NCBI GenBank assembly: GCA_948567375.1
Contig: OX419759.1
Location: 42,002,593 to 42,066,592 of the forward strand
Direction of reading: 5' to 3'
Origin: Lunularia cruciata
Taxonomy: Eukaryota > Streptophyta > Marchantiopsida > Lunulariales > Lunulariaceae
Length of the DNA: 64,000 nucleotides
The notes below the pieces were generated by a model that was not told the origin of the DNA, made no database searches, and saw only the letters and a list, made by a program, of their open reading frames with translations. Position 1 is the stretch's first letter. Every line of letters starts with the position of its first letter. A program made the translations under genes and the position numbers. This document shows positions 9,273-40,264 of this stretch, one piece after another.

Positions 9273-10389
9273 CAAGAAGGTCCAACATGCAAACCCAAGT
9301 CAAGTAATCCCCTCCTTTCCCTCAATCTCTTGCTCTCAAGTTCAATGGACATGAACTTGCTTTATGTCCCTTTTCTCCACATAGAAAGCACTTAGACTCA
9401 CTCTTTCCTCCAAGCGGTGTAGGTTTTTGAATCCTCTAAACACTCTCTTCAAATTCTATTCTAAACTCTTTTTTCCTCAAATCCACCCCTACAATTACCT
9501 CAAAACCTTGGGGAACCTTGAAAAGTCTCAATTTTCACTCTTGATGGCCCTCTATGTTCCCAAGATGAATCTAAACATTCAAATATGCTTTTTGTTGCTC
9601 TCAAACTCCTCGTGCATGAGATCTCAACTCTGCAAAATTGACTTTTCCTCACAATGTCACTCAAATCTCTCAACTAGAATGTCATAGTCTCGTGAAATTT
9701 TTACCCTTGATCACCACTCTAGGGTGTCCCTCCTTGCAAAATTTCAGATCTTTTCATTGAGCCATTTGGCCTGGACACCTTTCTATTCAGCACACATATT
9801 TCAAATTTGGCTAAAAGCTACCCCCTTTACTTAAAAAACTCATAACTCTTGGCACGAGAATGATCTCTCTCTAACTTTTGTGTCAAAGGTAGGATACAAT
9901 ACATTTAATTTTATTGGAAATTTTCAAGACAATCCACTAGAAACTGAAGAAATAGCATACTCTGTACAATTTTCTAGAGAGCATGCAATTGCATGAGTAG
10001 TTTACGCTATCAACTTTCCAAAATTCTAGCCCAGTGAAAATAGTAGCTCTCACAATAATTTTAAGTGTACTAATTGTAAGATAACCCAAACTATCATATG
10101 TAGAAATTTCAAGTCCAAATCTCAAAGTCTAGATTTTGCCCAAAATCACCTTAATCTCCAAAATCTGCAATATACCTCACACAATCTCTCCAAATCCTCT
10201 CAAGTGTACAAGATGTACAAAATCACCTCAAAGACATCATAATGAACTACATGGTATACAAGTGAGTTGAAGTTCTCTAACATAAGTTCAGCCCTCTCCT
10301 CCCCTAAAGTTTTCTCCAAGTGAGCTCTCATAGCCTCCTTTTGTCTAATATAGAATTGTACACAAAATATTATCTTGCCTTCTAAAGAG
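9273..10389 (-). pseudogene. Family B leader and ORF1 fragment, copy B2
   Basis: On the minus strand this parallels 33,118-34,220 of B1. It contains the reading frame just after the primer site (QKEAMRAHLEKTLGEERAEL at about 10,350-10,290), then GLEISTYDSLGYL, then the zinc-knuckle region near 9,330-9,440 whose translation resembles CFLCGEKGHKASSC of B1. The homology stops at about 9,273 just after the knuckle. There is no gag, protease or polymerase, so only the 5' end of the element survives. Confidence 0.7.
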
Positions 10390-10407
10390 GTCCCGTCAAT
10401 GGAACCA
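10390..10407 (-). other. Primer-binding site of B2 (tRNA-Asp type)
   Basis: Minus strand TGGTTCCATTGACGGGAC lies seven bases inside the LTR end. It resembles TGGCGCCGTTGCCGGGGA, the tRNA-Asp-complementary site known from plant Athila/Tat elements, with several changes of the C-to-T or G-to-A type. Confidence 0.7.
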
Positions 10408-10413
10408 AAAATG

Positions 10414-11034
10414 TGAGCCGGCTTGTTTCTCACTTAGGATGAACCTCTGATGGCTATCATAGTAGTGGACAATGGACTAAGAAGGCAAAGAACCCCAACT
10501 TCATCATACTCCTCCAAGGCTAACACTCCAAGACTCAAGACATTGCTCACTAGTTTATATACTTGCCAATAATTACGCACAAAATTTACTAATTATTGGA
10601 GTAACTCAAGCTACTAGGCTAAAAGTGAAATGAAGTCAAGAAAGTATAAAGGAATATCCATCCACATGGGCATATAAGCATATGATCTCATCTTGACTCA
10701 ACCACTAAGTCAAGGATTCATTCACATGGGCTATCCTTGGACTATAAAAGAATCCAAAAAAGAAAGGCTTGCGATCATAAGGGTTCTCAATTCTTTCCTC
10801 CAAGCCAAACACTTAGGAATAATACTAAGTCAACACACTTGAATCCAAAATAGTGGTGCTCATCTTTTCCACTTCTTCTAAAGTAAAGTACACCACTATC
10901 TTACTATGACTAAATTTAGCTAATCATGACTAATGTAGAACCATATTTTATCTCTATATAAATAATATCTCTTAGTATTTATAATACTAAGCTAAATATC
11001 ATAATATCACACACATGCACAAATGGATGTTACA
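10414..11034 (-). repeat. 5' LTR of family B, copy B2
   Basis: On the minus strand it starts TGTAACATCCATTTGTGCAT at 11,034 and ends CCGGCTCA at 10,414, matching both B1 LTRs (32,397-33,093 and 39,550-40,264) along the length. It includes the TTATATAGAGATAAA segment that is a plausible TATA region. It sits beside the LTR-like repeat that begins at 11,035, which it appears to have invaded or truncated. Confidence 0.82.
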
Positions 11035-13673: not shown

Positions 13674-15383
13674 GAATTTGAGGAGACTCAAAAACCTCAT
13701 CAAGCAATGATTTATCAACTACTTTAAGATTTTGCATATGTGTTTCCATATGATCAGCCAAAGGATTACCCTCCAATCGTGATATGCCCTTTAAGATTGC
13801 GTTTTTACCAAAGATTACTCCAATGAGTAGATCAATCTATTGGCTCTCACCAAAGGAGTTAGAACACTTGTAACAACCCTTATAGAGTTATTGGAGAAAG
13901 ATTTCATAGAAGGATTGACATAGTACATTTCCTTGGGGAGCACCAATATTATTTGTTCCAAAGAAGGATGGAGGACTTCATTTCTATATTGACTATTGGG
14001 AGCTCAATAAACAAACAATGAAGAATGCATATCCTTTGACTTGAATTGATGACTTGCTTGATAGATTGAGTGGAGCATGGTACTTCTCCAAGTTGGATCT
14101 TGAATTTGAGGAGACTCAAAAACCTCATCAAGCAATGATTGATCAACTACTTTAAGAGTTTGCATATGTGTTTGCATATGATCAGCCAAAGGATTACCCT
14201 CCAATTGTGATATGCCCTTCAAGATTGCGTTTTTACCAAAGAGTACTCCAATGAGTAGATCAATCTATTGGCTCTCACCAAAGGAGTTAGAACACTTGTA
14301 ACAACCCTTATAGAGTTATTGGAGAAGGATTTCATAGAAGGATTGACATAGTACATTTCCTTGGGGAGCACCAATATTATTTGTTCCAAAGAAGGATGGA
14401 GGACTTCATTTCTATATTGACTATTGGGAGCTCAATAAATAAACAATGAAGAATACATATCCTTTGCTTGAATTGATGACTTGCTTGATAGATTGAGTGG
14501 AGCATGGTACTTATCCAAGTTGGATCTTGAATTTGAGGAGACTCAAAAACCTCATCAAGCAATGATTGATCAACTACTTTAAGAGTTTGCATATGTGTTT
14601 GCATATGATCAGCCAAAGGATTACCCTCCAATCGTGATATGCCCTTCAAGATTGCGTTTTTACCAAAGAGTACTCCAATGAGTAGATCAATCTATTGGCT
14701 CTCACCAAAGGAGTTAGAACACTTGTAACAACCCTTATAGTGTTATTGGAGAAAGATTTCATAGAAGGATTGACATAGTACATTTCCTTGGGGAGCACCA
14801 ATATTATTTGTTCCAAAGAAGGATGGAGGACTTCATTTCTATATTGACTATTGGGAGCTCAATAAACAAACAATGAAGAATGCATATCCTTTGACTTGAA
14901 TTGATGACTTGCTTGATAGATTGAGTGGAGCATGGTACTTCTCCAAGTTGGATCTTGAATTTGAGGAGACTCAAAAACCTCATCAAGCAATGATTGATCA
15001 ACTACTTTAAGAGTTTGCATATGTGTTTGCATATGATCAGCCAAAGGATTACCCTCCAATCGTGATATGCCCTTCAAGATTGCGTTTTTACCAAAGAGTA
15101 CTCCAATGAGTAGATCAATCTATTGGCTCTCTCCAAAGGAGTTAGAACACTTGTAACAACCCTTATAGAGTATTGGAGAAGGATTTCATAGAAGGATTGA
15201 CATAGTACATTTCCTTGGGGAGCACCAATATTATTTGTTCCAAAGAAGGATGGAGGACTTCATTTCTATATTGACTATTGGGAGCTCAATAAACAAACAA
15301 TGAAGAATACATATCCTTTGACTTGAATTGATGACTTGCTTGATAGATTGAGTAGAGCATGGTACTTCTCCAAGTTAGATCTT
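13674..15383 (+). repeat. Four tandem copies of a 427-bp block of the A1 RT region
   Basis: Copies begin at 13,674, 14,102, 14,529 and 14,957, each opening GAATTTGAGGAGACTCAAAA and closing near TCCAAGTTGGATCTT; the last closes at 15,383 and runs into the normal RT continuation. Spacing is 428, 427 and 428 bp. The units differ from one another at only a handful of positions (for example CAATTGTG/CAATCGTG and GAGAAGG/GAGAAAG), and all carry the same disabling stops, so the amplification came after the element had decayed. Confidence 0.93.
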
Positions 15384-25615: not shown

Positions 25616-25686
25616 ATACATTGTTACACAACATACATCGCTGTCAACATCATAAACAATAGAAGCACAACTCACACATGACCCTT

Positions 25687-26160
25687 TAGAACTCAGCAAG
25701 ATTGTTCTTCAACCCAAACGGTGAGAATTTCCACTGATATAACACATCCTTACCGTGAGGATCAATAGCCTATAATGCTTTTGTAGACTTATCCTCCTCC
25801 CTGATCGGCAAATGATGATATCCCGCTTGAAGATCCAAATTATTGAAGACCTTTGCATGCCCAATCGCATCAAAAATCTCCTCCAGTGTAGGCATGGCAT
25901 ACCAATCATCCTTGGTCTATTGGTTGATAGGACGGTAATATCCACACATCCGCTTATTTGTGTAGTTGCCATGCATATCCTTCTTGGCTAGCATCAATGT
26001 TGTTGATGCATACTCTCCATATGAAATCTCTACCAAACCAGCCTCAAAAAGGTCACTACTCTAGCTCTGAATCAATGTCCTCTCCATGCCACTATAGCGA
26101 TAAGGACATCAAAAAACTGGTGTATCGCTAGTCAGCTCAATCCATATCCCATGTCCCTTC
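25687..26160 (-). pseudogene. Element E reverse transcriptase (N-terminal half)
   Basis: Minus strand: MLAKKDMHGNYTNKRMCGYY then RPINQ, a stop, DDWYAMPTLEEIFDAIGHAK, then motif A NLDLQAGYHHLPIREEDKS, a second stop, and IDPHGKDVLYQWKFSPFGLK. This is clear Gypsy RT up to motif B (SPFGLKNN). The sequence stops resembling RT at about 25,687, before the YxDD catalytic site. Only two in-frame stops interrupt about 150 codons, so decay is moderate. Confidence 0.86.
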
Positions 26161-26321
26161 AGAGCACCAAAATCCTTCATATTGAAGGCAAAACAACTCG
26201 TGTGACTCTTCCAGAACCTCCAAACCCTCGGTCTTTCCTCTCTAACAAGCTTGGGTCTAAGATTTGGCTCCCAAGTATTCTTTGTAACTATCGTAGGAGT
26301 GGAAGATGTGCTGATTGGCTG

Positions 26322-26732
26322 CTACATTCGGCCCTTGGGAGCAATAGTGTCATGCCTCCGACCACTAGAGGTCCCAACCTCTGCGTGAAAAACTCCTTCC
26401 ACTTTGGTTGCAAGCTCCACACGTCCTCTAGTTGCATCCCAAGTGGACCAAGGGTGTAATCTAAGTAGCCCATGCTCACCTAAATGGACTCCAAGTAGAC
26501 CACTCTCCCTACTAGCTATTGGCTGTGTCCCAAGAATATCATGTCCACTCGGTCCACCGCTCCCAGCATGTGCCTGAATTGTCTCTATAGGCACAGGGCT
26601 CACAAGTGTCCGAGTGGTGATACCTATCAAGTGCATCCTATGCTTCTCTACCAAGGCAAGGCTCACAATCCAGGTCATACAGTTCAGGTCCATAGCCTGA
26701 CCTAACACTTGACGCATGGATGCCTCTAACAC
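26322..26732 (-). pseudogene. Element E methyltransferase C-terminus and linker to RT
   Basis: Open for 136 codons. It starts with EASMRQVLGQAMDLNCMTWI, which fits the last conserved block of C5 methyltransferases (motif X, usually a Gly-Asn pair near QxxGN; here GQAMD). It continues into a spacer (HPWSTWDATRGRVELATKVE) without a recognised domain. It is shifted in frame relative to the upstream ERERAMDFAP segment at about 26,770-26,740, so one indel separates them. Confidence 0.7.
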
Positions 26733-27248
26733 TACTGGAACAGCGATAATACCGGTGCAAAATCCATTGCCCGCTCTCTCTCATTGGCATTGGGCTCCAC
26801 TAATTGCTGCAATTGTGAGTCCCAAACAAGTCCAGGTCCTACTTCTTGAAAAGCATGAGAGCTTGGGAAACTCATGAGTGTGGGAAATGCAGCTCTAGGC
26901 TATCCCACTAGGTTCACCACTGCCATAGGTGACCTATCAGCCACTACTATCATCTAAGATTGACACTCGACATCCAAGATGTCATCAACAAGGATGTGGT
27001 CAAGTCGTTGAATTCCATCATAAGCATGTTGTAAAACCTCTCTAGGTAAGAGGTTCGTCCACCAAAGACAAAGGTGATGAGCCCGTGATCCCACTCTAGT
27101 TGCATCTAACAATACAACAGGTCCCATCCAAGAATGGACCTGATATGTACTTGCCACCACTCTAGTGCGAGAATCACCCATCAAAGGCACGTTCTCCAAA
27201 AGGTAAGCTGAAGAAATGGACTGATGAACTTGGAGATGTTGTAGTATC
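26640..27248 (-). pseudogene. Element E cytosine-C5 DNA methyltransferase, C-terminal half
   Basis: From 27,248 the minus strand reads ILQHLQVHQSISSAYLLENV then PLMGDSRTRVV: ENV is motif VI. Then VLLDATRVGSRAHHLCLWWT is the motif VIII region, where an RxR-type core is degraded to HHLCL. Next come LDHILVDDILD, a stop at 26,954, SPMAVVNLVG, and ERERAMDF (motif IX-like). It continues the half at 30,127-30,495: FWEMLR there joins ILQHLQ here in one frame once the insert is removed. Confidence 0.84.
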
Positions 27249-28649
27249 TGTTGTCGTGGGGTTTTGTCCTTGAGAGTGCACCGCGCACCTGGCTGCTAGT
27301 GCTTAGTTGCGATTGGTGTCAATGACTTAAGTCTTCCTGAGGTTTGTCATTCTCTTCCTTGTTCGATATGGCTGGCAGCTCTTCCCAATAGGTCAGGTTG
27401 TTCTAATTGTCCCCAGGGCAGGTTTCTCCCAAGGTTTGTATGTTGGATATTGTAACCTAAAGTTGATCTATAGCATTCAATTGTGTTTGACTGTGTTTGG
27501 CCTTGTAGCTCTACTCCTATATAGTATCGCTTCCAATTCTCTTTTATGTTTGGGTCTGTGGGTTTGGCTCTTGGCTCTTGGCTCAGACAGATTCCTAAAA
27601 TGGCTCTGGTGAGACTTTATGAAATAACCGCAAGCAACTAATGGTGGTCAAACCCGGCTGTATTGATCACTGAACTGTGCAATCATATAGACTGGACCAA
27701 GAGCTCCTAAATGCAGCCCGTCCCTTGACGACATCCATAATTCAGAGTACATTTATCCGTTCATGAATCATCCTCTTCAACCAGTCATACAGCTGTAAGT
27801 CAAACAAGACAAACAATTCTTCCCTATGGAGTGTCCATTCCTACTTTAACACTTGGGCAACCAAGTCATTCCAGCTGAGCATCCAAACTCGTCCAATCAC
27901 ATGCAGACAATCTTCTCAACTCCTTCTCTTTTATCAAACTGTCACTCACCGCTCAGCATTCAAAGCCTCTCCTTCTCTTCTCTCTGCCTGTCACTTCAGC
28001 ATCAGACCTCCAAATCTCCTTTGAGAAAATGGCCTCTCTATCTTCTGCCTAGCATCAGCCATTCCCCAACCTTTGAGAACTGCTATGTTGTCTCCAGCTC
28101 TCTTGGCCCTCACTGTAAAGCTCAAAAATTCCTCTCTGTCTGTCTCTCGTAGTTCACTCTCAAATCCTCACAACTAAATTCTGAAACTCCTCTTTCTGTC
28201 TCTCTTGGTTCACTCTCAACCTTCACAACAACTCGAGAGTTTCTCCTGGGTGTCTCCTGATCAGTCACAGTTCTTCCTTTGAAGCACAGTCCTTGTCTTG
28301 TACAATCCTATTCTCTCAAAGTTCATCTCATTCTCTCCTGACTAAACTTTTGAAACCCAAACTCCTTTCCCTCTGTCCCAGTGCAAAATCTCTCAAAATT
28401 TCCTTCATTTCTCACTTCTCTGTCCAGCTCCTGTACAGCCAGGTCTCTTCCTTCGAAATTTCTCCTTTTCAGCCCTTCTCTCAACGTCCTTCCTTTCAAT
28501 TTCCTCTGCCCATACTCTCCAGCTTCTGTACAGCCAGGTCTATTGTCCAACTCAAAATTTCACTCCTCCTGTCCAGGCTAGCACTCCTTCATTCCTCTCC
28601 TTTTCCTGTCCAAACCCCTCTAGAGTTTCTTCTCTCTCTCTTCAGGCCT

Positions 28650-29290
28650 TCACATTTCCTGCAAAAATGTGCCTTCCTGGTGTCCTCACAAAACCCCTCA
28701 CATTCATGTGAAAATTGCCTTCCTACACCCTCACCAAATCACTTCACATTCCTGCAAAAATTGTCTTCCTGCAGCCCTCACAAAACCCTTCACAGTCCTG
28801 CAAAAATTGCCTTCCTACACTCTCACCAAACCACTTCACATTCCTGCAAAAATTGTCTTCCTATAGCCCTCACAAACCCCTTCACAGTCCTGCAAAAATT
28901 GTCTTCTTGCAACCTCACCAAACCACTTCACATTGCTGTAAAATTTGCCTTCATGAAACACTATCTGCCCTGCACTTTCAAGCCCTCACATTCCTACAAA
29001 AATTTCCTTCATGAAACACTTTCTGCCCTGCACTTTCAAGCCCTCACATTCCTGCGGAAAATTTCCTTCATGAACACCTTCTGCCCTGAAATCTCAAGCC
29101 CCAACAGACCTGCGAAAATTGCCTTCATGCACCTCACCAAACCCATCACAGTCTTGAGAAATTTGCCTTCATGAAACACTTTCTGCCTTGCACTTTCAAG
29201 CCCTCACATTCCTGCGAAAATTTCCTTCATGGAACACCTTCTGCCCTGAAATCTCGAGCCCCAACAGACCTGCGAAAATTTCCCTTCTTG
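28650..29290. repeat. Minisatellite with period change from 46 to 58 bp
   Basis: The anchor CCTGCAAAAATTG (and variants) falls at 28,658, 28,705, 28,751, 28,797, 28,843, 28,889 and 28,935, a 46-bp period. It then falls at about 28,993, 29,051, 29,108, 29,152, 29,211 and 29,269, mostly 58 bp. The longer unit adds a segment around CACTTTCTGCCCTGCACTTT. Neither period is a multiple of three, which explains long open frames in more than one frame here. Confidence 0.9.
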
Positions 29291-29460
29291 CAGTCCTCAC
29301 AATCCCTCTCTTCTTTTAAATCTTCCTGTCATCACCTTCTTTCCCTCTCTCCTCTTTTCCCTGCAAAAATTCCCTTTCTTGCATTCCAGGCCAGCCCTAT
29401 GTTTCTCCAAAGCTCTTTCCCTCTCCTTCGATAATCTCTCCCTCCACCAAACCCCCTCTT

Positions 29461-29690
29461 GTCCAACTCGAAAATTTTCTCTCCTGTGTGTCTTCCTCCG
29501 TCCAAACCCTCCAGCTTCTCCAGAATTTCTCCTCCTGCCAAACCCCCTCCTGTCCAACTCGAAAATTTCTCTCCTGTGTGTGTTCCTCTGTCCAAACCCT
29601 CTAGCTTCTCAAGAATTTCTCCTCCTGCCGAACCCTTTCCTGTCCAACTCGAAATTTCCTCTCCTGATTTTTCCTCTGTCCCTAAAGAGC
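29461..29690. repeat. Two and a half tandem copies of a 90-bp unit
   Basis: GTCCAACTCGAAA recurs at 29,461, 29,552 and 29,642. Each is followed by CTCTCCTGTGTGT and GTCCAAACCCTC, with the third copy cut short. It lies in the same pyrimidine-rich insert as the 46/58-bp array. Confidence 0.88.
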
Positions 29691-30126
29691 CTTCCTGACT
29701 ACTCCTAACATTCATTCCAAAATTCCTTTCGATTCACTTCCTTCCTGCCACCTTCTGTCCTCTGCCCCCAAACTCCTCCTGTCAGTCCCCGAAAAAAAAA
29801 ACCTCTTTTTCTCTCAAAAATTTTGTCCCCAACTCCTCTCTCAAAACTCCCCTGTCACTTTTCCAAAACCCTACTCCTTTCTTCTCCCAAAATTTTCTGC
29901 CACTCCTCTCGAAATCCTCTGCAAACTTCCCTCTCAAAATCTTTTGGCATTTTGTGAAAACCCTCAGCCCTTCTCTGTCTCCTCACTTTCTCCCAAGACA
30001 AGGTAGCAAAACCACACCTGAGACATATTATCATAAATCCCTATTCCTTACAACAAATAAAAGAGAAAAGAAAATTTATCACACCAAAAGCCTCAAGGGT
30101 ACACGTGGGCTATTTTCACGATGACA

Positions 30127-30495
30127 CCGTAACATCTCCCAAAACACACCAGGACGAGGATCCTGAAGACCCAAACCGTGGCCCGCACATGTATGTCCCT
30201 AACATGGCCATCCAGAAATCACAAAGTGAATAGGCCCATGTCTGTCTAGGTCATGCACCCCTAGTAAGGAAATGTATGTTGGTAGGGCCTTCTGGTAACC
30301 TCTAACTACTGACATCGATAATAACTCTGGATAGGCCAAGTGTGCTACATGATGTAGAGAGACTCGCCTAGCAGTCTCACCTCTCTCTACATACAAGTAC
30401 CTCTGTACTCGTATACCCGCCTGTAATACCGTAGCTAGTCCGGTGCTAATCCCACCAAATAACTCGAATAGACGTACCCCCTCTACTAGATACTA
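30127..30495 (-). pseudogene. Element E cytosine-C5 DNA methyltransferase, N-terminal half
   Basis: In frame with the upstream open segment apart from a TAG at 30,493-30,495. The minus strand reads RLFELFGGISTGLATVLQAG (motif I, the S-adenosylmethionine-binding FxGxG block), YVERGETARRVSLHHVAHL, then HFVISGWPC (motif IV with the catalytic Pro-Cys). Immediately after PC comes a second TAG, then GHTCAGHGLGLQDPRPGVFW and EMLR, where the insert begins. Apart from the two nonsense codons the frame is continuous. It would transfer methyl to cytosine C5 if active. Confidence 0.88.
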
Positions 30496-31180
30496 CCAAG
30501 CAATGAGTGTGGTATCCAGAGGTGTCAAAGCAATCAACTCTGGAGGCTCATCCTCACACTCATCTTCTGATGGTAGGAAGGCTACACTCCAAGCTTGCTG
30601 CACCAACTGATCTGCATGCTTTTGCAATGCCTCCTCTAAACTCCACAATGGCACATCCAAGATGGATGGAACAATCCCACTTGTACTCCAAATCCGAGTG
30701 ATCTCCTCTGGTATTGGAGTATCCTCTCCATGGGCATTCCCTTCCAACAAATCACCAGGCCAAGTAACTGCACCACTGAAAGCTAAAACTGATGCGGCCA
30801 TGGTCTCGGACTGTAGTGAGCCAAGATTGCCACTACTAAAGCGTACTGGTAGGCGACATACCCATCCTTCATCAGACTGCCAACCAGGTCTATAGGAGGT
30901 TGTCTCCTCCCAATAGTCAATGCTGAAACCCATGGAGTATAACATTACTCCTCCAACTAGCACATCATATGACTCAACTATTGTTGCAATAGCTTGAGCT
31001 CTCACCACCGAGCTATCTATCGGATGAACAGGCTGAACCTAGACAACAAGCTCCCCACGTGTGATGTACTATGTCAAGCCACCACCTAGAGATGTCTGGA
31101 TCTGAAATGAACACCTCTCCACATCGGTCTTTTGTAACTCCAGACAATTGCAGCCTTCCCCAACATGAAGGGTTGCTCAC
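30496..31180 (-). pseudogene. Element E protease tail and pre-methyltransferase region
   Basis: The segment 31,008-30,496 is open for 171 codons and holds VESYDVLVGGVMLYSMGF, which fits the C-terminal strand of a retropepsin (YDVLxG), then DYWEETTSYRPGWQSDEGWV and an acidic linker (PSEDECEDEPPELI). The same frame runs upstream past two stops to FQIQTSLGGLT at about 31,090. A one-base shift near 31,150 separates it from the LDSGEQ protease block. Confidence 0.72.
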
Positions 31181-31921: not shown

Positions 31922-32396
31922 TCAAGCTAGAACTCGTAGGTACAGCCGATCTACTCCTGGCCCGGAGCTTGAAGTGATAGAGATATAGTTTCGAGACCAA
32001 TATTGTCTCCATAACTCAATCTCCTCCAAATGAGCTCTCTTGAACTCATGGTAGTCGTCCATCGGTGGACCCTCCAAGTGCTGAAACAATCCCTTCCATG
32101 CCATGAAGGGTGTAAGCAAATTTGGGTTCCATCTACTGCAGATCACACCGGCTATCAAACTCCTGGATAAAGTCATCCAACTCAATGGTACCCATTATAC
32201 CAGAGTAACGCCTAGGGCATTTAGAGGACCCATAAATCTTGTCCATGTCCCACAACAACGGTGCGGACACACCAAGTGCACTCTCAACTAAATCAGCTCC
32301 AATGTCAAACTCCAACTCAAAGTCAATCTCCTCCCTCACTAGGACTTGAGATACACGCTGATACCAAGCACCACTCCAAGTAAACACACTATGTAC
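31922..32396 (-). pseudogene. Element E gag
   Basis: The minus strand from 32,396 continues the codons at 40,312-40,265: the segment up to GVSLVVHS rejoins VFTWSGAWYQRVSQ when B1 is removed. It reads EEIDFELEFDIGADLVESAL, GTIELDDFIQEFDSRCDLQ, a frameshift at about 32,140, then NLLTPFMAWKGLFQHLEGPP and HEFKRAHLEEIELWRQYW. This fits a retrotransposon gag (helical, W-x-x-F pattern before a small LEGP turn). No zinc knuckle is visible. Confidence 0.68.
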
Positions 32397-33093
32397 TGGA
32401 ACACCCATTTGTGCATGTGTGTGGTATTGTAATATTTAGCTTGGTATTACAAGTACTTAAGAGATATTATTTATATAGAGATAAAGGATGGTCCTATATT
32501 AGTCATGGTAAGCTAAAGTTAGTCATAGCTAAGATAGATGGGACTTTACTTTAGAGGAAGTAGAAAAGATGAGCACCACTATTTTGGATTTTAGTGTGTT
32601 TACTTGGTATTATTCCTAGGTGTTTGGCTTTGAGGAAAGACTTAAGAACTCTTGGGTCTGCAAGCCTTTTTGTTTTGGATTCATCTTTAGTCCAAGGATA
32701 TCCCATGTGAAGGAATCCTTGACTTAGTGGTTGGGTCAAGGTAAGACCACATGCTTAGGGGAATATGCCCATGTGAATGGATATTCCTTTCTACATTTTG
32801 ACTTTACTTGACTTTTAGTCTAGTAACTTGAGTTACTTGAGTTACTACGGTAATAATTAACTTTAGTGTAACTATTTCACAAGTATATAAACAAAGGGTG
32901 AGGAGGTACTCATCATCCTTTCATTTGCAACTATCTCTCTCTCATTGAGTTCTCTAGTGAGAAATGTCTTGAGTCTTGGAGTGTTAGCCTTGGAGGAGTA
33001 TGATGGAGTTAGGGTTCCTTGCCTTCTTAGTCCATGGTGCGCTACTATAATAGCCATCAGAGGTTCATCCTAAGTGAGAGATAGACCGGCTCA
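32397..33093 (+). repeat. 5' LTR of B1
   Basis: It starts TGGAACACCCATTTGTGCAT and ends CCGGCTCA. It contains ATTTATATAGAGATAAAG near 32,468 (likely TATA region) and pairs along its length with the 3' LTR. The start is set by comparison with the 3' copy (TGTAACACCC). Confidence 0.92.
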
Positions 33094-33099
33094 CATTTT

Positions 33100-33117
33100 T
33101 GGTTCCGTTGTTGGGAC
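33100..33117 (+). other. Primer-binding site of B1 (tRNA-Asp type)
   Basis: TGGTTCCGTTGTTGGGAC starts six bases after the LTR end. Against the Athila/Tat site TGGCGCCGTTGCCGGGGA, most differences are C to T, as expected from methyl-cytosine decay. Confidence 0.78.
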
Positions 33118-33136
33118 TTCTCTAGAAGGCAAGATA

Positions 33137-33307
33137 ATGTTCCGCGTTCAATTCTACAATAGGCAGAAGGAGGCTATGAGAGCTCACTTGAAGAGAACAT
33201 TAGGAGAGGAGAGAGCTGAACTTATGTTAGAGAACCAAGATCCATTTGTATACCCTATAGTTCATTATGATGTCTTTGAAGTGATTTTGTACATCTTGTA
33301 TACATAA
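33137..33307 (+). CDS. Short leader ORF directly after the primer site
   Basis: Open for 56 codons from ATG at 33,137: MFRVQFYNRQKEAMRAHLKR then TLGEERAELMLE, ending VILYILYT. The same frame is open in B2 (minus, 10,380-10,200) with conservative changes, although its ATG is ATA there. No known domain. It may be a leader peptide, the start of a longer ORF1, or chance; conservation in two copies is the only support. Confidence 0.4.
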   Translation: MFRVQFYNRQKEAMRAHLKRTLGEERAELMLENQDPFVYPIVHYDVFEVILYILYT

Positions 33308-33954
33308 GAGGATTTGGAGAAATTGTGTGAGGTGGATTATATATTTTGGGGATTAAGGTGATTTTGGGCAAAATCTCAAGTTTGAGATCTGAACTTGAAA
33401 TTTCTACATATAATAGCTTTGGTTATCTTTTAGTTATCACACTTGTAATTATTGTGAGAGCTATTATGCGCATTGGGCTAGAATTTTTGAAAGTTGATAG
33501 GGTAAACTGTTCCCGCAACTGCATGCTCTTTGGAAAATTGTATAGAGTCTACCATTTCTTTCATTTTCATTGGATTGTTGTGAAACTTTCCTAGAAAATT
33601 CAGTATATTATATCCTACTTGCTGACAAAAAAAATAGAGAGAGATCATTCTTAACCAGGGAGTGATGAGTTTTTGAAGTGAGGGAGGTGGTTTTCAGACC
33701 AAATCTGAAATATGTGTGCTGAATAGAAAGGTGTCTACGCCAAATGGCTCAATGAAAAGATCTGAAATTTTGCAGAGAGGGACAACCTAGAGTTTTGATC
33801 ATGTGAGCAAAGTTTTGGAGAACTGTCACATACAAGTTGAGAGGTTTGAGTGAAATTGTGAGGAAGGGTCAATTCTGCAGAGTATAGATCTCATGCATGA
33901 GGAGTTTGAGAGCAACAAAAAGCATGTTTGAGTGTTTAGATTCATTGTGGGAAC

Positions 33955-34422
33955 ATGGAGGGTCACCAAGAGTGGAAATTGAGACTATGCAAGCTTCTCC
34001 AAGGGTTTGAGGTGATTGTAGGGGTGCATCTGAGGAAAAGAGAGTTTACAATAGAATTTGAAGAGAGTATTGAGAGGATCCAAAAACCTACACCACTTGG
34101 AGGAAAGAGTGAGTCTAAGTGCTTTCTATGTGGAGAGAAGGGACATAAGGCAAGTTCATGTCCATTGACCTTTGACAGCAAGAGATTGAGGGAAAGGAGA
34201 GTCTTACTTGACTTGGATTTGCATGTTGGACCTTCTTCACCAAGATTGGGAGGGAGAAGATCTAAGACCAAGGAGTTGTGTGAGGTTTGTGGAGTTGAAG
34301 GACTTCCAAAAGGACATGAGTGTAGTGGAGTAAAATCACTTTTGGAGACTTTGGTGGAGGATCTTGGAGAGAGTCTTAGTATAGTTACAGAAATACTACC
34401 ACCTTCATCAGCTAGTTCTTAA
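33955..34422 (+). CDS. ORF1: zinc-knuckle protein upstream of gag
   Basis: 155 codons from ATG. It has a CCHC knuckle CFLCGEKGHKASSC (C-x2-C-x4-H-x4-C) near residues 55-68 and a second Cys/His cluster CEVCGVEGLPKGHEC near residues 108-122. The N-terminus (KLLQGFEVIVGVHLRKREFT) resembles no gag core I know. It lies in a separate frame block 240 bp before gag. Tat/Ogre-type plant elements are known to carry an extra ORF in this position, so it may be its counterpart. Nucleic-acid binding is inferred from the knuckle. Confidence 0.62.
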   Translation: MEGHQEWKLRLCKLLQGFEVIVGVHLRKREFTIEFEESIERIQKPTPLGGKSESKCFLCGEKGHKASSCPLTFDSKRLRERRVLLDLDLHVGPSSPRLGGRRSKTKELCEVCGVEGLPKGHECSGVKSLLETLVEDLGESLSIVTEILPPSSASS

Positions 34423-34658
34423 GATAAGTGATGGAGATAATCTTTCAACTTATGGATAAATTATCCATAAGGGTTTGATTAATATGCACTCTAGGATTTG
34501 ATGTTGCTATAGAAATCTTGGAGCAACCTGAGCCTTTTGTGTTCCCTAGGGTGGATTACTCTCAAATGGTGTTAGTCATATACATACTCCATTAGTTATG
34601 GAGTGAGAGAAAAGAAAAGAAAAAAATTTGAGAGAAAGGAAGATAGTAAGAGGTTAAG

Positions 34659-36089
34659 ATGGGAAAACTTCCAGTTTTCTTTGGCAAGGATGGAGCAGAT
34701 GTGGAGGCCTTTGTGAGAGATTTCAAGAGAGCTTTCATAGGAAACAATGAGAGGAGGAAGAATGAGTGGGCCTCATTATTATCAGATTTCTTTGAGGATG
34801 CAGCACTTACATGGTATGAGTCAGAATACCAAAAGAGAGAGAGGAGAGATGGGGAAGAGGAGTCTTGAGAGACTTTGACTTCAGCACTCATTGAGAACTT
34901 TCTTCCTGATGAGAGTTATGAGAGATTGATGAGTGAGGTTACATTTCTCAAGCAAGGAGATGGAGAGAAAGTGAGAGTCTATGTGGAAAGAGTGGAAAAG
35001 TTAGAGTCCAGATTTTACATAGTGTTGAGGAAGGGTAGAGATGATGTGGAGACTACTATGATTGGCATAGGGGCCATGCTCACCAAGAATTTTGTGGGAG
35101 GGTTGAGACCACAAATTAGAAGCAAGATGACATATGAGAAACCTTCTTCCAAGGTTGAAGCTATCAAGATCGCAATTCGTATGGAGGAGAGTTTGGAAGG
35201 AGATGAGAGTGATTTGGTGGTGAAGGAGGTTGTGCATCCTCCTCAAGGCTACAAGTATGGTGGAACTTCTGATACTTTGGTGGCAATGGTTGCACCAAAA
35301 GGAGTAGTTGCTCCAATTCTTGCACCTCCACAAAAGGATCCACTTCAAACCATCACAAAACAACGTGCGGATCTCAAGATCAATGTGGTGCAACTATGGG
35401 AGAAGAGAGAGGTGGATCAGGATGTAGGGAGAGGACCTACAAGTTATGGAAACTATCCACATAGAGGAGACCAAAAAACCAACAATTTCAATGATAGAAA
35501 TTGTTTTGGTTGTGGAGGAAGTGGCCATATCCAAAGGAATTGCTCAAATTCCACTTACCATGGAGGAAGGGGTTATGAAGGAGCCAATAGAGGGAAAGGA
35601 GGTAGTGAAACCCAAGTGGCTCCTAATCCCAACAAAGGTAAGGGGATAGCATCCATAGATGTGGTTGAGAGCAAGTATGAGAAGGGAGAGTGCTCAAACT
35701 CCAAGGGTCTTAATTTGGAGCTTTTGGCACAAGAGAAGAAGAGAGCTCATTTTGCAGAGGATGTTCATTCTTCTCAAGGATTTACTCCAAGCAAGGATAA
35801 TCCTATGTCTACTAGGAGCACTCGCACCTCAACACCATCAACAACAAAGACTCCAAGGAAGAAGTTGGGGATGGAGGATTTCTTAATTTCAAAGCAACAG
35901 TGGAACTACAATGTGTTGGAGGATGTTGGTAGCCACAAGGCTAACAGCATAGTGGACCAATTGATTGCTTTGAACCTTACCTTGAGAAAGGAGCTTAGAG
36001 GTTGTTTGAGTTCTACAAGGAGCAAGAAGAAGAAGAAGGAAAAAGCTCCAATATCAATGGGGGTGGTGGATGCCAAGCCAACACCATGA
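34659..36089 (+). pseudogene. B1 gag (capsid and nucleocapsid)
   Basis: It starts MGKLPVFFGKDGADVEAFVR and reads through a capsid-type region (LSDFFEDAALTWYE), an in-frame TGA at 34,866, then ETLTSALIENFLPDESYERL, a capsid C-terminal part (RVYVERVEKLESRFY), a CCHC knuckle CFGCGGSGHIQRNC at about 35,503-35,544, and a basic tail ending in another TGA at 36,087. The same frame continues into the protease. It was probably one gag-pro-pol frame interrupted only by TGA codons. Confidence 0.85.
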
Positions 36090-37140
36090 GAGGCTTGTGA
36101 ATATGCCTCCAAGATTGATGTGAGAGTGAATGGTCACAACATCAAGGATGCACTTGTTGATGGAGGATCAGCAGTGAATGCCATGTCAGAAAGGTTGATG
36201 AAGAAGTTGGGTATGATACCCTCAAGACCTTCAACATTTGTGGTGAGCATGGCAAACAAGCAACAAGTTTGACCAACAGGGGTGATGGATAAAGTGATAG
36301 TTTCAGTTATGGGAGTTCAAAATCTCATGATTTTCCAAGTCTTGAAGGATTCAAGCTATGACTTACTTCTTGGGAGGCCATGGTTGAGAGCAGCACGCAC
36401 AATTGATCGATGGCACAAAGGGTACTTGAAGATTGGGCCATCAAACCATAGAGTCACAGTTTTTGTGACTAACACCACCAACACTTCACATTCAGATACA
36501 CCATCTTGTGATTATTGGGAATCAGATTCTGAAGAAGGAGCTTTAGGTGTGGACACAAGCATGGAAGAGGACACTTCTACAAAGGAGGATGAATCTAAAT
36601 CTGATTTAGATGTGTATCCTTTGTGTGCTTTGGATTTTTCACCTAAGCCAAAGGTTTTGAAGGATCCAAATAAATCACCATTGACACTTGAGGACGTAGA
36701 GAGAAGGTTATCTACCCTCAAGTATGGCCCAAATGTCACCAAGGAGGAGAAAGTGAGATTTGAGGAGATTTTCCGCAAGTTCATCCATGTGTTTGCTTTC
36801 AGTTACAAGGATTTGAAGGAAGTCACCTTGGAGGAGCACAAGATAGAGGTGGAGTCACATGCAAGACCAATCCGCCAAAAGCAACATCACATTAGCCCAC
36901 CAATATCTTTGGTTGTGAAGGAAGAGATTGATAAGCTCAAGGAGGCTGGATTTATCTTTGAGGTAGAGAATTCAGAATGGGTGTCTCCAATTGTCATTGT
37001 GAAGAAAAAGAATGGCAAGCTTCGGCTATGTGTGGATTACAAGAAGCTCAATGTTGTTACCAAGAAGGACTACTACCCATTGCCATTCATTGATGAGATC
37101 TTGGAGGAGGTTGCAGGTCATGAGAGGTACAGTTTGGAGA
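36090..37140 (+). pseudogene. B1 protease and N-terminal RT
   Basis: In frame with gag. The protease site is ALVDGGSAVNAMSERLMKKL (about 36,150-36,205), DGG where DSG or DTG is usual. A third TGA follows at about 36,270, then SSYDLLLGRPWLRAA, the closing part of retropepsin. An acidic linker (about 36,520-36,600) leads to the RT: EEIDKLKEAGFIFEVENSEW, VSPIVIVKKKNGKLRLCVDY and PLPFIDEILEEVAGHERYS. The frame is lost near 37,137 by a small indel at the motif A block. Confidence 0.88.
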
Positions 37141-37726
37141 TGGTTATAGTGGATATAACCAAATCAAGATTGCACCAGAGCATCAACAACTCACCACATT
37201 CACCACACCTTGGTGAACTTACGCTTTCAAGGTCATGCCTTGTGGGCTTTGCAATGCTCTAGCCACATTCCAATGGTTCATGAACAAGGTATTTGAACCT
37301 TTCATTGGGAAATTTGTGAGAGACTTCATTGATGACTTTTTTGTCTATGGGAGCAAGGAAGAGCACTTTGAGCACCTAATCAAGGTCTTGCAACACTTGG
37401 ATGAGGCAAATGCATCACTCAACCCAGAGAAGTGCATTTTTGGATGTGAAGAAGGTCTACTTTTGAGGCACATCATCTCCAAGGATGGAATAGCAATTGA
37501 TCCTGAGAAGGTGAGGAAAATCTCAGACCTTCCATTCCCTTCAAGCTTGACAAAGTTATGCCAATTCTTGGGGATGGTTGGATACTATAGGAGGTTCATC
37601 TTCTCATTTTCCAACAAAGCTTATGCATTGACCATCTACATGACAAAGGGTGTAGATTACATGGTGATTTTGGAGGACAAGAGGCTCTCAAAGCTTTTGA
37701 GGAGCTCAAGCAATCCCTTCTTGTAG
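37141..37726 (+). pseudogene. B1 RT catalytic core
   Basis: After the shift the frame gives GYSGYNQIKIAPEHQQLTTF, a TGA just after PW at about 37,211, then MPCGLCNALATFQWFMNKVF (motif B) and FVRDFIDDFFVYGSKEEHFE, with the YxDD box as FIDD, so the two catalytic Asp residues are kept. It continues through LNPEKCIFGCEEGLLLRHII and FLGMVGYYRRFI (thumb/connection). The frame shifts again near 37,660, before RNase H. Confidence 0.9.
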
Positions 37727-38389
37727 CTCCAATTCTTGCTAAATCCGATTGGAGTAAGCCTTTCATCCTCTACACTGATGCTTCTAATGTAGCTATGGAA
37801 TGCACTCTTAGTCAATTAGACCAAGATGTGCATGATCACCCAATAGCTTATACTAGTAGGCAGATGGTTTCAATAGAGAAGAACTATTGTATCACGGAGA
37901 GGTAAGGGTTGGTAGATCCTTCCCTCTCTAAACCCTAAACCCTTTGGTCTCAAGAAGTTTAGACACTACTTGACTGGAGGGAAAGTCACCATTGTCACGG
38001 ATCACAAGGCTTTGAAGTACATCTTCAACAAGCCTAATCTTGAAGGGAGACTTGCAAGGTGGATGATACTCTTGTCTGAGTATGACTACACCATTGAGGA
38101 TAGGCCAAGAAAGAAATATGCAAATGCTGATTTGTTATCTAGAGCCCATGATCATGATGGAGATGAGCTAGTAGATGATTCCTTCCAAGATGAGGAGCTC
38201 ATGACAATCTCAGTCACTCTAGAGGTTCCAATGGAGTACAAGGAGATTGTGGATTTTGTGACAAGAGGTAACTATCCAGAAGAGATGCATGCTAGGGAGA
38301 GGAAGGCCCTTGCAGCAAGATCTAGACCTTACACAATGGTGGGGATATTCTTTTTCACCAAGGAGCAAATGGTCTACTTCAAAGAGTAG
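37665..38389 (+). pseudogene. B1 RNase H
   Basis: A first part in a shifted frame reads ALKAFEELKQSLLVAPILAK then FILYTDASNVAMECTLSQ (catalytic Asp in YTDAS) and IAYTSRQMVSIEKNYCITER. A disturbed stretch at 37,900-37,950 includes a telomere-like motif. The second part, 37,970-38,389, reads VTIVTDHKALKYIFNKPNLE and YANADLLSRAHDHDGDE. The fragment B3 at 57,715-58,106 lacks the disturbed stretch. Confidence 0.85.
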
Positions 38390-39501
38390 TGGGTAAGAAA
38401 GAGTCTATCTTACTTATAAAGGAGTTTCATGAAGGTTTAGTGTGTGGAGGACACTTTGCAGGAAAAGTGACTGGTTTCAAGATTCTAGATGCAAGTTACC
38501 ATTGGAGAGGGATTTTCAAGGATTGTCTTGATTATTGCAAAACTTGTCATGTTTGTCAAGCTTTTGCTAGAAAGTCTACATCCACTCCACCACTTAGATC
38601 AATTCTTTTGCTAGGACCTTTTGAGAAGTGGGGAATTGATTTTGTAGGTCCTCTCAATAGAACCCCAAGGAGCAATTGGTACATTGTGGTAGTTATTGAT
38701 TACCTTACCAAGTGGGTTGAGGCTAGACCATTGAGGGACAAGAATGAAGATGAAGTTGGTAGATTTCTTTATGAATGCATTATCACTAGATTTGGATGCC
38801 ATTTGGAGTTGGTTTCTGATAGAGGAGGAGAGTTTATAGGAAGCATTACTACAGCCATGCTACGACATTTCTCTATCACAAATAGAGTAACTACATCCTA
38901 TAAGCCAAATTCCAATGGCTTGGTAGAGAGAACCAATCAGACCTTGTGCATGATGTTGGCCAAAGATGCAGAAATGGAATGGGCTAAACATCATTGGGAC
39001 AAGAGGATTTATGCAGTTTTGTGGGAGTATAGGACAACCATGAAAACTTCTACTGGATATTCTCCATTTCAATTGGTATATGGTATTGATTCTACCTTAC
39101 CTATTCACTTTGATCTTCCTACCTTTCAAAGCATTCATAGGAGATTGAAGAAAGCACAAGGAGGTGATGTAGAGAAGTCAAGGAAGGATCAACTCATGGA
39201 GTTGGAAGAGGCAAGAGCAGTTGCTATGGTTCAAGAGGAGCAAGCCCAAAGGAAACAAAAGGAGAGCTATGACAAGAGGCAAGGCAAGAAGAAGGTGGAG
39301 CCTTTCAAAGAAGGTGATTGGGTAATGTTGTTTGATTCCATTCGATTCAAGAGAGTGCAAAAGAAGTTTTTGCCGAAGTACTTTGGACCTTTCATAGTGG
39401 AGAAGGTGTGGGGCAATTACACTTATGATCTCAAGGAGTTGGGAGGAAGACACTTTGATAGGATTAACCATGATAATTTGAAGATGTACCACAAAAGGTA
39501 G
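38389..39501 (+). CDS. B1 integrase (intact reading frame, 370 residues)
   Basis: Open throughout; as a polyprotein segment its real start is by processing, not at the first codon. The zinc-binding region has FHEGLVCGGHFAGKV and CKTCHVCQ (HHCC). The core has GIDFVGPL (Asp 1), LVSDRGGEF (Asp 2) and NGLVERTNQTL (Glu), so the DDE triad is complete. The C-terminal part has FKEGDWVMLFD and FGPFIVEKVWGNYTYDL, without a chromodomain. It ends 48 bp before the 3' LTR, leaving no room for an env-like gene. Best-preserved coding sequence in the window. Confidence 0.93.
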   Translation: MGKKESILLIKEFHEGLVCGGHFAGKVTGFKILDASYHWRGIFKDCLDYCKTCHVCQAFARKSTSTPPLRSILLLGPFEKWGIDFVGPLNRTPRSNWYIVVVIDYLTKWVEARPLRDKNEDEVGRFLYECIITRFGCHLELVSDRGGEFIGSITTAMLRHFSITNRVTTSYKPNSNGLVERTNQTLCMMLAKDAEMEWAKHHWDKRIYAVLWEYRTTMKTSTGYSPFQLVYGIDSTLPIHFDLPTFQSIHRRLKKAQGGDVEKSRKDQLMELEEARAVAMVQEEQAQRKQKESYDKRQGKKKVEPFKEGDWVMLFDSIRFKRVQKKFLPKYFGPFIVEKVWGNYTYDLKELGGRHFDRINHDNLKMYHKR

Positions 39502-39549
39502 AGAGACCTTCACTTTGAGGAAAAAGTGAAAACTTAGTTCGGGAGTAAA

Positions 39550-40264
39550 TGTAACACCCATTTGTGCATGTGTGTGGTATTGTGATATTTAGCTTTGTAT
39601 TACAAGTACTTTGAAGATGTACTTAAATAATCTCTTATTTATATAGAGATAAAGGATGGTTCTATATTAGTCATGGTAAGCTAAATTTAGTCATAACTAA
39701 GATATAGGGGACCTTACTTTAGAAGAAGTAGAAAAGATGAGCACCACTATTTTGAATTTTAGTGTGTTTACTTGGTATTATTCCTAGGTGTTTGGCTTTG
39801 TGGAAAGAGTTAAGAACTCTTGGGTCTACAAGCCTTTTTGTTTTGAATTCTTCTTTAGTCCAAGGATAGCCCATGTGAAGGAATCCTTGACTTAGTGGTT
39901 GGGTCAAGATAAGACCACATGCTTAGGAGAATATGCCCATGTGAATGGATATTCCTTTCTACTTTTTTGACTTTACTTGACTTTTAGTCTAGTAACTTGA
40001 GTTACTTGAGTTACTGCAATAATTAGTAACTTTGGTATGTAACAATTTCACAAGTATATAAACAAAGGGTGAGGAGGTACTCATCATCCTTTCATTTGAA
40101 ACTATCTCTCTCTCATTGAGTTCTCTTGTGAGCAATGTCTTGAGTCTTGGAGTGTTAGCCTTGGAGGAGTATGATGGAGTTGGGGTTCCTTGCCTTCTTA
40201 GTCCATGGTGCGCTACCACAATAGCCATCAAAGGTTCATCTTGAGTGAGAGACATGCCGGCTCA
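39550..40264 (+). repeat. 3' LTR of B1
   Basis: TGTAACACCCATTTGTGCAT to CCGGCTCA, paired with 32,397-33,093. It is 18 bp longer, including an extra GAAGATGTACTTAAATAATC-type segment near 39,615. The upstream sequence (about 39,520-39,549) is only moderately purine-rich. Confidence 0.92.

What the first reader, a model, noticed from the sequence alone, without database searches (positions are those of the whole stretch)
26322..31180. A Gypsy retrotransposon carrying a cytosine-C5 DNA methyltransferase between protease and RT
Seen: on the minus strand a retropepsin block (LDSGEQ, then YDVLVGG) is followed, in the same frame as the protease tail, by FELFGGISTG (C5-methyltransferase motif I), HFVISGWPC (motif IV with catalytic PC), ENVPLMGDS (motif VI), a motif VIII-like block and VLGQAMDLN (motif X), and then a Gypsy RT. 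The linker and RT show this is one polyprotein, not a host gene caught nearby. Established: methyltransferase-bearing retrotransposons have been reported from dinoflagellates and charophyte algae. Inferred: this is a land-plant member, suggesting that self-methylating elements persist well beyond those groups. It could write methylation on its own DNA, or counter host silencing, if an active copy exists.
Basis: partly seen in the sequence, partly recalled or inferred. Interest (0 to 1): 0.92.

Follow-up and report, generated by a model that had tools for sequence, protein, structure and literature searches.

The report
Methyltransferase-carrying Gypsy retrotransposon, decayed copy
This is the broken remains of a jumping gene that carries its own DNA-methylating enzyme; relatives occur in liverworts, peat mosses and green algae, which suggests that such elements can mark DNA with the same chemical tag that hosts use to silence them.

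Summary

Precedent: KnitGypsy-Dnmt3 of Klebsormidium. A limited open-access search found no land-plant report. Activity and dN/dS untested; host unknown.

The parts
32356..32366 (-). PBS-like TGGTATCAGCG just upstream of gag (initiator-Met-type primer site, recalled); the end of a 5' LTR would lie just above
   Evidence: read; naming recalled, weak
31973..32246 (-). gag N-terminal part, in two frames; about 330 gag residues of relatives (incl. the zinc-knuckle region) missing after it
   Evidence: tblastn P0003/P0004
31143..31889 (-). gag C-terminal part and start of retropepsin (LLDSGEQ 31193-31173); two TAG stops
   Evidence: tblastn
30118..31152 (-). retropepsin tail (YDVLVGG), linker, MTase motifs I-IV, one frame with four TAG stops
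   Evidence: tblastn P0002/P0004, summed E 9.98e-136 for P0004; stops
30439..30468 (-). MTase motif I FELFGGISTG (SAM site)
30202..30228 (-). MTase motif IV HFVISGWPC with catalytic Cys; TAG follows directly
27251..30117 (.). nested insertion without recognised coding domain, C-biased, with 46/58/90-bp tandem repeats; splits the MTase; not removed or bridged here
   Evidence: homology break
26759..27250 (-). MTase motif VI (LLENV) to ERERAMDF; motif VIII arginines both lost (SRAHHLCLWWTN); two TAG stops
   Evidence: tblastn 57-63% identity to bryophyte elements
26322..26780 (-). MTase motif X (VLGQAMDLN) and C-terminal linker; 44 residues from HPW to the stop
26322..26324 (-). UAG in context UAG-CAG-CCA (fits UAG-CAR-YYA, recalled), where relatives' gag-PR-MTase proteins end; RT continues in the same frame
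25677..26273 (-). Ty3/Gypsy reverse transcriptase, N-terminal part, homology ends at 25677

Best explanation
A decayed copy of a family of Ty3/Gypsy retrotransposons of green plants and algae that carry a DNMT3-type cytosine-C5 methyltransferase. In the lineage of this copy, gag, protease and MTase form one ORF that ends in a leaky UAG; RT, RNase H and integrase (plus a PHD finger in L001) are made as a readthrough extension in the same frame. The MTase would therefore be made at Gag-like abundance, be packed with the genomic RNA in the capsid, and methylate the element's own new cDNA before integration. Shown by sequence: domain order, DNMT3-type fold of a relative, conserved catalytic residues, stop position and context, same frame. 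Inferred: readthrough, packaging, methylation of the cDNA, benefit to the element.
Against: No activity, readthrough or methylation was measured. Only two DNA sequences bear on the stop context. P0155 and P0156 run through from MTase to RT without a stop, so readthrough is not universal. dN/dS could not be computed. No plant host DNMT3 was in hand for the tree. Window pieces alone give weak or no methyltransferase hits.
Confidence: 0.68

Rival explanations
1. The MTase acts in the nucleus, not in the particle: it deposits methylation in trans on chromosomal copies or neighbours, tempering the element or disguising it as host DNA.
For: Same enzymology; a PHD finger after integrase in L001 and in many relatives suggests contact with chromatin; published discussion lists related roles (PMC5890265, section 11 read).
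Against: MTase sits on the Gag side of the probable leaky stop in this lineage, which favours particle packaging; localisation signals were not examined.
Confidence: 0.2
2. The domain is kept as a nucleic-acid-binding module (cDNA or RNA binding, integration targeting) and catalysis is secondary or lost.
For: Motif IV has Glu in 25, Asp in 3 and Ser in 2 of 80 domains in place of the usual Pro.
Against: Catalytic Cys in 78 of 80 (one miss is a gap in a Marchantia gene model, one a Tyr), Glu 79 of 80, each Arg of RxR 77 of 80; hard to explain without catalysis.
Confidence: 0.1
3. A host methyltransferase gene fragment that happened to lie in or beside an ordinary Gypsy element in this genome.
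For: None beyond the decay of this copy; no second copy in this genome could be looked for (genome search did not complete).
Against: Same order in elements of several species and in one apparently complete contig.
Confidence: 0.01
4. The UAG between MTase and RT is an ordinary terminator and RT is expressed another way (reinitiation, separate RNA), the CARYYA match being chance.
For: Only two DNA sequences; P0155 and P0156 have no stop there.
Against: Match in two elements whose MTase pieces share 46-49% identity, where 0.2-0.4% of stop triplets have such a context; same frame on both sides; no Met before the RT core in L001.
Confidence: 0.2

Closest known systems
KnitGypsy-Dnmt3 of Klebsormidium nitens (de Mendoza et al. 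2018, PMC5890265; abstract, outline, sections 9 and 11 and passages seen)
   Same: LTR Gypsy-type pol carrying an unrearranged, intronless DNMT3-related methyltransferase in the Pol polyprotein; several copies; purifying selection reported there (Ka/Ks < 0.2).
   Different: Charophyte alga; its repeats are described as DIRS-like (no inverted repeat of 40+ bases in L001). No K. nitens protein was named in my hit lists, so sequence kinship was not tested. A leaky stop and a second placement of the MTase are not described in the parts I read.
SymbioDIRS-Dnmt3 of Symbiodinium (same paper)
   Same: DNMT3-type domain in a retrotransposon polyprotein; the paper reports that it can methylate CG.
   Different: DIRS class; here relatives have a DDE integrase (rve) and the RT is Ty3-type.
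DNMT3A/DNMT3B catalytic domain
   Different: About 20-26% identity; sits inside a retroelement protein; Pfam lists no other DNMT3-type domain in P0002-P0004.
Plant DRM2
   Same: Related profile (E 6.7e-9).
   Different: DRM motifs are rearranged (PMC5890265 section 9); here I-IV-VI-VIII-X are in canonical order.

Membership tests
Ty3/Gypsy LTR retrotransposon | Ty3-type RT with retropepsin upstream | tested here: met
   RT piece hits Ty3 RT 1.6e-12 and groups with Marchantia/Sphagnum element RTs, 98/96; DSG protease upstream
Ty3/Gypsy LTR retrotransposon | RNase H and integrase after RT | tested here: inconclusive
   Window copy is truncated at 25677; both present in L001 and P0155
Ty3/Gypsy LTR retrotransposon | paired LTRs | tested here: inconclusive
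   No LTR pair for this copy among the 20 of 23 direct-repeat families shown; only a PBS-like site
DNMT3-type C5 methyltransferase | profile and fold match, canonical motif order | tested here: met
   (on relatives; the window copy aligns colinearly with them)
DNMT3-type C5 methyltransferase | catalytic Cys, Glu, RxR | tested here: met
   72 of 80 relatives have all four; the window copy keeps Cys and Glu but lost both Arg
DNMT3-type C5 methyltransferase | groups with host DNMT3 rather than other MTases in a tree | not tested
   no plant DNMT3 in hand; only one human DNMT3A segment used as outgroup
DRM | rearranged motif order | tested here: not met
KnitGypsy-Dnmt3 | DNMT3 domain in the Pol polyprotein of a Gypsy element | tested here: met
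   definition from PMC5890265 section 9
KnitGypsy-Dnmt3 | DIRS-like repeat structure | tested here: inconclusive
   no inverted repeat of 40+ bases in L001, whose LTRs were not delimited; window copy incomplete
KnitGypsy-Dnmt3 | sequence kinship with the K. nitens copies | not tested
   no K. nitens sequence named (120 of 492 listed)
SymbioDIRS-Dnmt3 (DIRS) | tyrosine recombinase instead of DDE integrase | tested here: not met
   rve integrase in relatives; the window copy itself ends before that part

The most novel reading that the evidence does not exclude
One ancient capture of a DNMT3-type enzyme gave rise to methyltransferase-bearing Gypsy elements across the whole green lineage (chlorophytes, charophytes, liverworts, peat mosses). 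The domain moved once within the polyprotein, between the Gag side before RT and the slot between RNase H and integrase. In the protease-side lineage a leaky UAG makes the methyltransferase a Gag-level particle protein that methylates nascent cDNA inside the capsid.
Probability: 0.33. Interest if true: 0.82.

Novelty: new variant of a known kind. Interest (0 to 1): 0.62.

Why it matters
Hosts use cytosine methylation to silence transposons; an element that brings its own DNMT3-type methyltransferase, and keeps its catalytic residues across bryophytes and green algae, implies that methylating DNA benefits the element. The tractable liverwort Marchantia holds several gene models with near-complete MTase domains of this family (P0003, P0004, P0008, P0010), so the question raised by the 2018 algal and dinoflagellate work becomes testable by knockout and methylome sequencing. 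The two placements in the polyprotein and the probable readthrough organisation say where in the life cycle the enzyme may act.

Tried and rejected
Direct Pfam scans of window pieces found no DNA_methylase; not taken as refutation, because colinear relatives are PF00145-positive. The VI-X piece alone against the PDB gave nothing relevant. Viral contigs: searches found no relative of the element; one search gave 14 loci and one hit (a contig already), all matching only inside the MTase part of the query (phage-type C5 MTases by presumption; not followed). Prokaryote genome contigs: of 60 pattern matches 1 encodes a relative, L001. Insert ends: TG...CA-like ends but no clean target-site duplication by eye; identity of the insert unresolved. 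Host identification: no tRNA and no Rfam family; the 6 ORF rows of 220+ aa look by eye like retrotransposon parts or, for 28293-29174, repeat sequence, and were not scanned with Pfam. Whether the MTase-bearing Gypsy RTs form one clade among all Gypsy RTs was not decided; the one MTase-less Gypsy RT included (from this window, branch 2.1) fell, without support, on the side of the protease-type group, which does not favour a single RT lineage. dN/dS not done: DNA of only one intact relative. The MTase tree is rooted by one long DNMT3A segment (branch 2.5-2.8), so I do not claim which placement is ancestral. Papers: 10 searches; no listing or passage seen reported DNMT-Gypsy elements in land plants; subscription papers are mostly not held and bioRxiv is not.
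Full report
What is there. On the minus strand the window holds a decayed Ty3/Gypsy element. Tblastn with relatives maps it piece by piece and colinearly: gag N-part 32246-31973; gag C-part and protease start 31889-31143; protease tail, linker and MTase motifs I-IV 31152-30118; MTase motif VI to ERERAMDF 27250-26759; motif X and linker 26780-26340; RT 26273-25677. About 330 gag residues of the relatives are missing, RT homology ends at 25677, and a ~2.87 kb C-rich, tandem-repeat insertion (~27251-30117) splits the MTase. Frame changes occur within gag, in the protease and at motif X, apart from those across the gap and the insert. Five pieces hold 14 in-frame stops, one of them the UAG discussed below. 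Motif VIII has lost both arginines, so this copy is dead.

Conservation. Of 194 proteins retrieved, 80 hold a near-complete domain by my cut-offs. Catalytic Cys is kept in 78, the ENV Glu in 79, each motif VIII Arg in 77, all four in 72 of 80. The Pro of motif IV is Glu in 25, Asp in 3 and Ser in 2; 22 of the 28 Glu/Asp rows are of the RNase-H-side type. I cannot explain this.

Architecture. All 194 proteins were ordered by profile: 111 show the MTase alone; in 10 the MTase precedes RT in one protein, and in one more it precedes RNase H and integrase; in 32 protease precedes MTase and no RT is seen; in 30 RNase H precedes MTase, 23 of these followed by integrase and 22 of those by a PHD finger; 10 have MTase then integrase only. 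P0155 is PR-MTase-RT-RH-INT-PHD in one 2358-aa protein; P0168 of the green alga Monoraphidium neglectum is PR-RT-RH-MTase-INT-PHD. In the MTase tree (80 domains plus a DNMT3A segment) the protease-side group (24) and the RNase-H-side group (36) are separated by one branch (100/99); 20 domains have no assigned architecture. The RT tree separates them as well, more weakly (87/87; 7 and 28 rows), but the one MTase-less Gypsy RT included falls on the protease-type side, on a long branch and without support. MTase and RT distances correlate over 30 elements (r 0.65), 27 of which are of the RNase-H-side type (r 0.61 among these), with 0 of 2000 permutations as high in either test. So the MTase is an old, co-inherited part at least of those elements. 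A single capture is plausible but not proven, as no host plant DNMT3 was in the tree.

A probable leaky stop between MTase and RT. In relatives the gag-PR-MTase protein ends 43-45 residues after an HPW block in 13 of the 31 proteins that hold that block. Three of the 13 (P0045, P0049, P0083) belong to a group in which other rows run on to 87 residues, so these may be contig ends; the other 18 of the 31 end at 17 to 301 residues, some being fragments or models that run into RT. The window has its UAG at 44 residues, at 26324-26322, and RT continues in the same frame. Marchantia P0011 and Sphagnum P0023, which run on into RT, skip this stretch, probably through modelled introns. The stop context is UAG-CAG-CCA, which fits the plant-virus readthrough consensus UAG-CAR-YYA (recalled). 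It is the only such stop among the 14; background is 13 of 7093 stop triplets in the window, itself included. The one apparently complete element whose DNA I obtained, L001 (9285 bases, ends overlapping by 127 bases, filed under a cyanobacterial MAG), has the same layout: the gag-PR-MTase ORF ends in UAG-CAA-UCA and a 1047-aa RT-RH-INT-PHD ORF follows directly in the same frame, with no Met before residue 117. P0038 and P0152 end with the same residues, NALSATK, as that ORF. This makes readthrough the likeliest way to make RT, and would put the MTase at Gag-like abundance. Readthrough, packaging and cDNA methylation are inference.

What is known. De Mendoza et al. 2018 (PMC5890265; outline, abstract, sections 9 and 11 and passages seen) described DNMT3 domains in Gypsy elements of Klebsormidium and DNMTs in DIRS and LINE elements of Symbiodinium; SymbioDIRS-Dnmt3 could methylate CG, while a tested SymbioLINE-Dnmt did not methylate DNA in yeast, and purifying selection was reported. 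A 2025 survey (PMC12344493, passages) mentions DNMT3s in retrotransposons of streptophytes and dinoflagellates, citing the 2018 paper and naming LTR Copia and DIRS. The passages seen of PMC10952607 and PMC6453930 mention no such element in bryophytes. Ten searches of open-access papers showed none for land plants; this is a limited search.

Verdict. The window copy is a fossil; its interest lies in the family it points to.

Noticed in passing
L001 1-9285 (contig CADCWO010000201.1): An apparently complete methyltransferase-Gypsy element with open ORFs and a 127-base end overlap sits in a genome record labelled as a Synechococcales cyanobacterium; it looks like a eukaryotic contaminant. P0036 is likewise filed under an Obscuribacterales MAG.
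   Followed up: partly
relatives (e.g. P0155, P0168, P0161): Catalytic motif IV has Glu or Asp instead of the proline beside the catalytic cysteine (GWEC, GWDC and the like) in 28 of 80 domains.
   Followed up: partly
P0154, P0155, P0168, L001 ORF2: PHD finger after the integrase in many relatives, P0168 also with a weak Tudor-like hit below its cut-off; possible chromatin-guided integration.
   Followed up: no
32467-40264: Separate retroelement with an LTR-like pair (two blocks, 32467-32766/39635-39934 and 32867-33093/40038-40264, 94-95% alike), apparently inserted just 5' of the methyltransferase element; related inverted stretches lie at 9338-10889.
   Followed up: no
27251-30117: Nested insertion with strong GC skew (-0.57 in 28001-30000) and 46/58/90-bp tandem repeats; TG...CA-like ends without a clear target-site duplication.
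   Followed up: partly
13674-15383: Tandem array of four 427-bp units, 98% matches.
   Followed up: no
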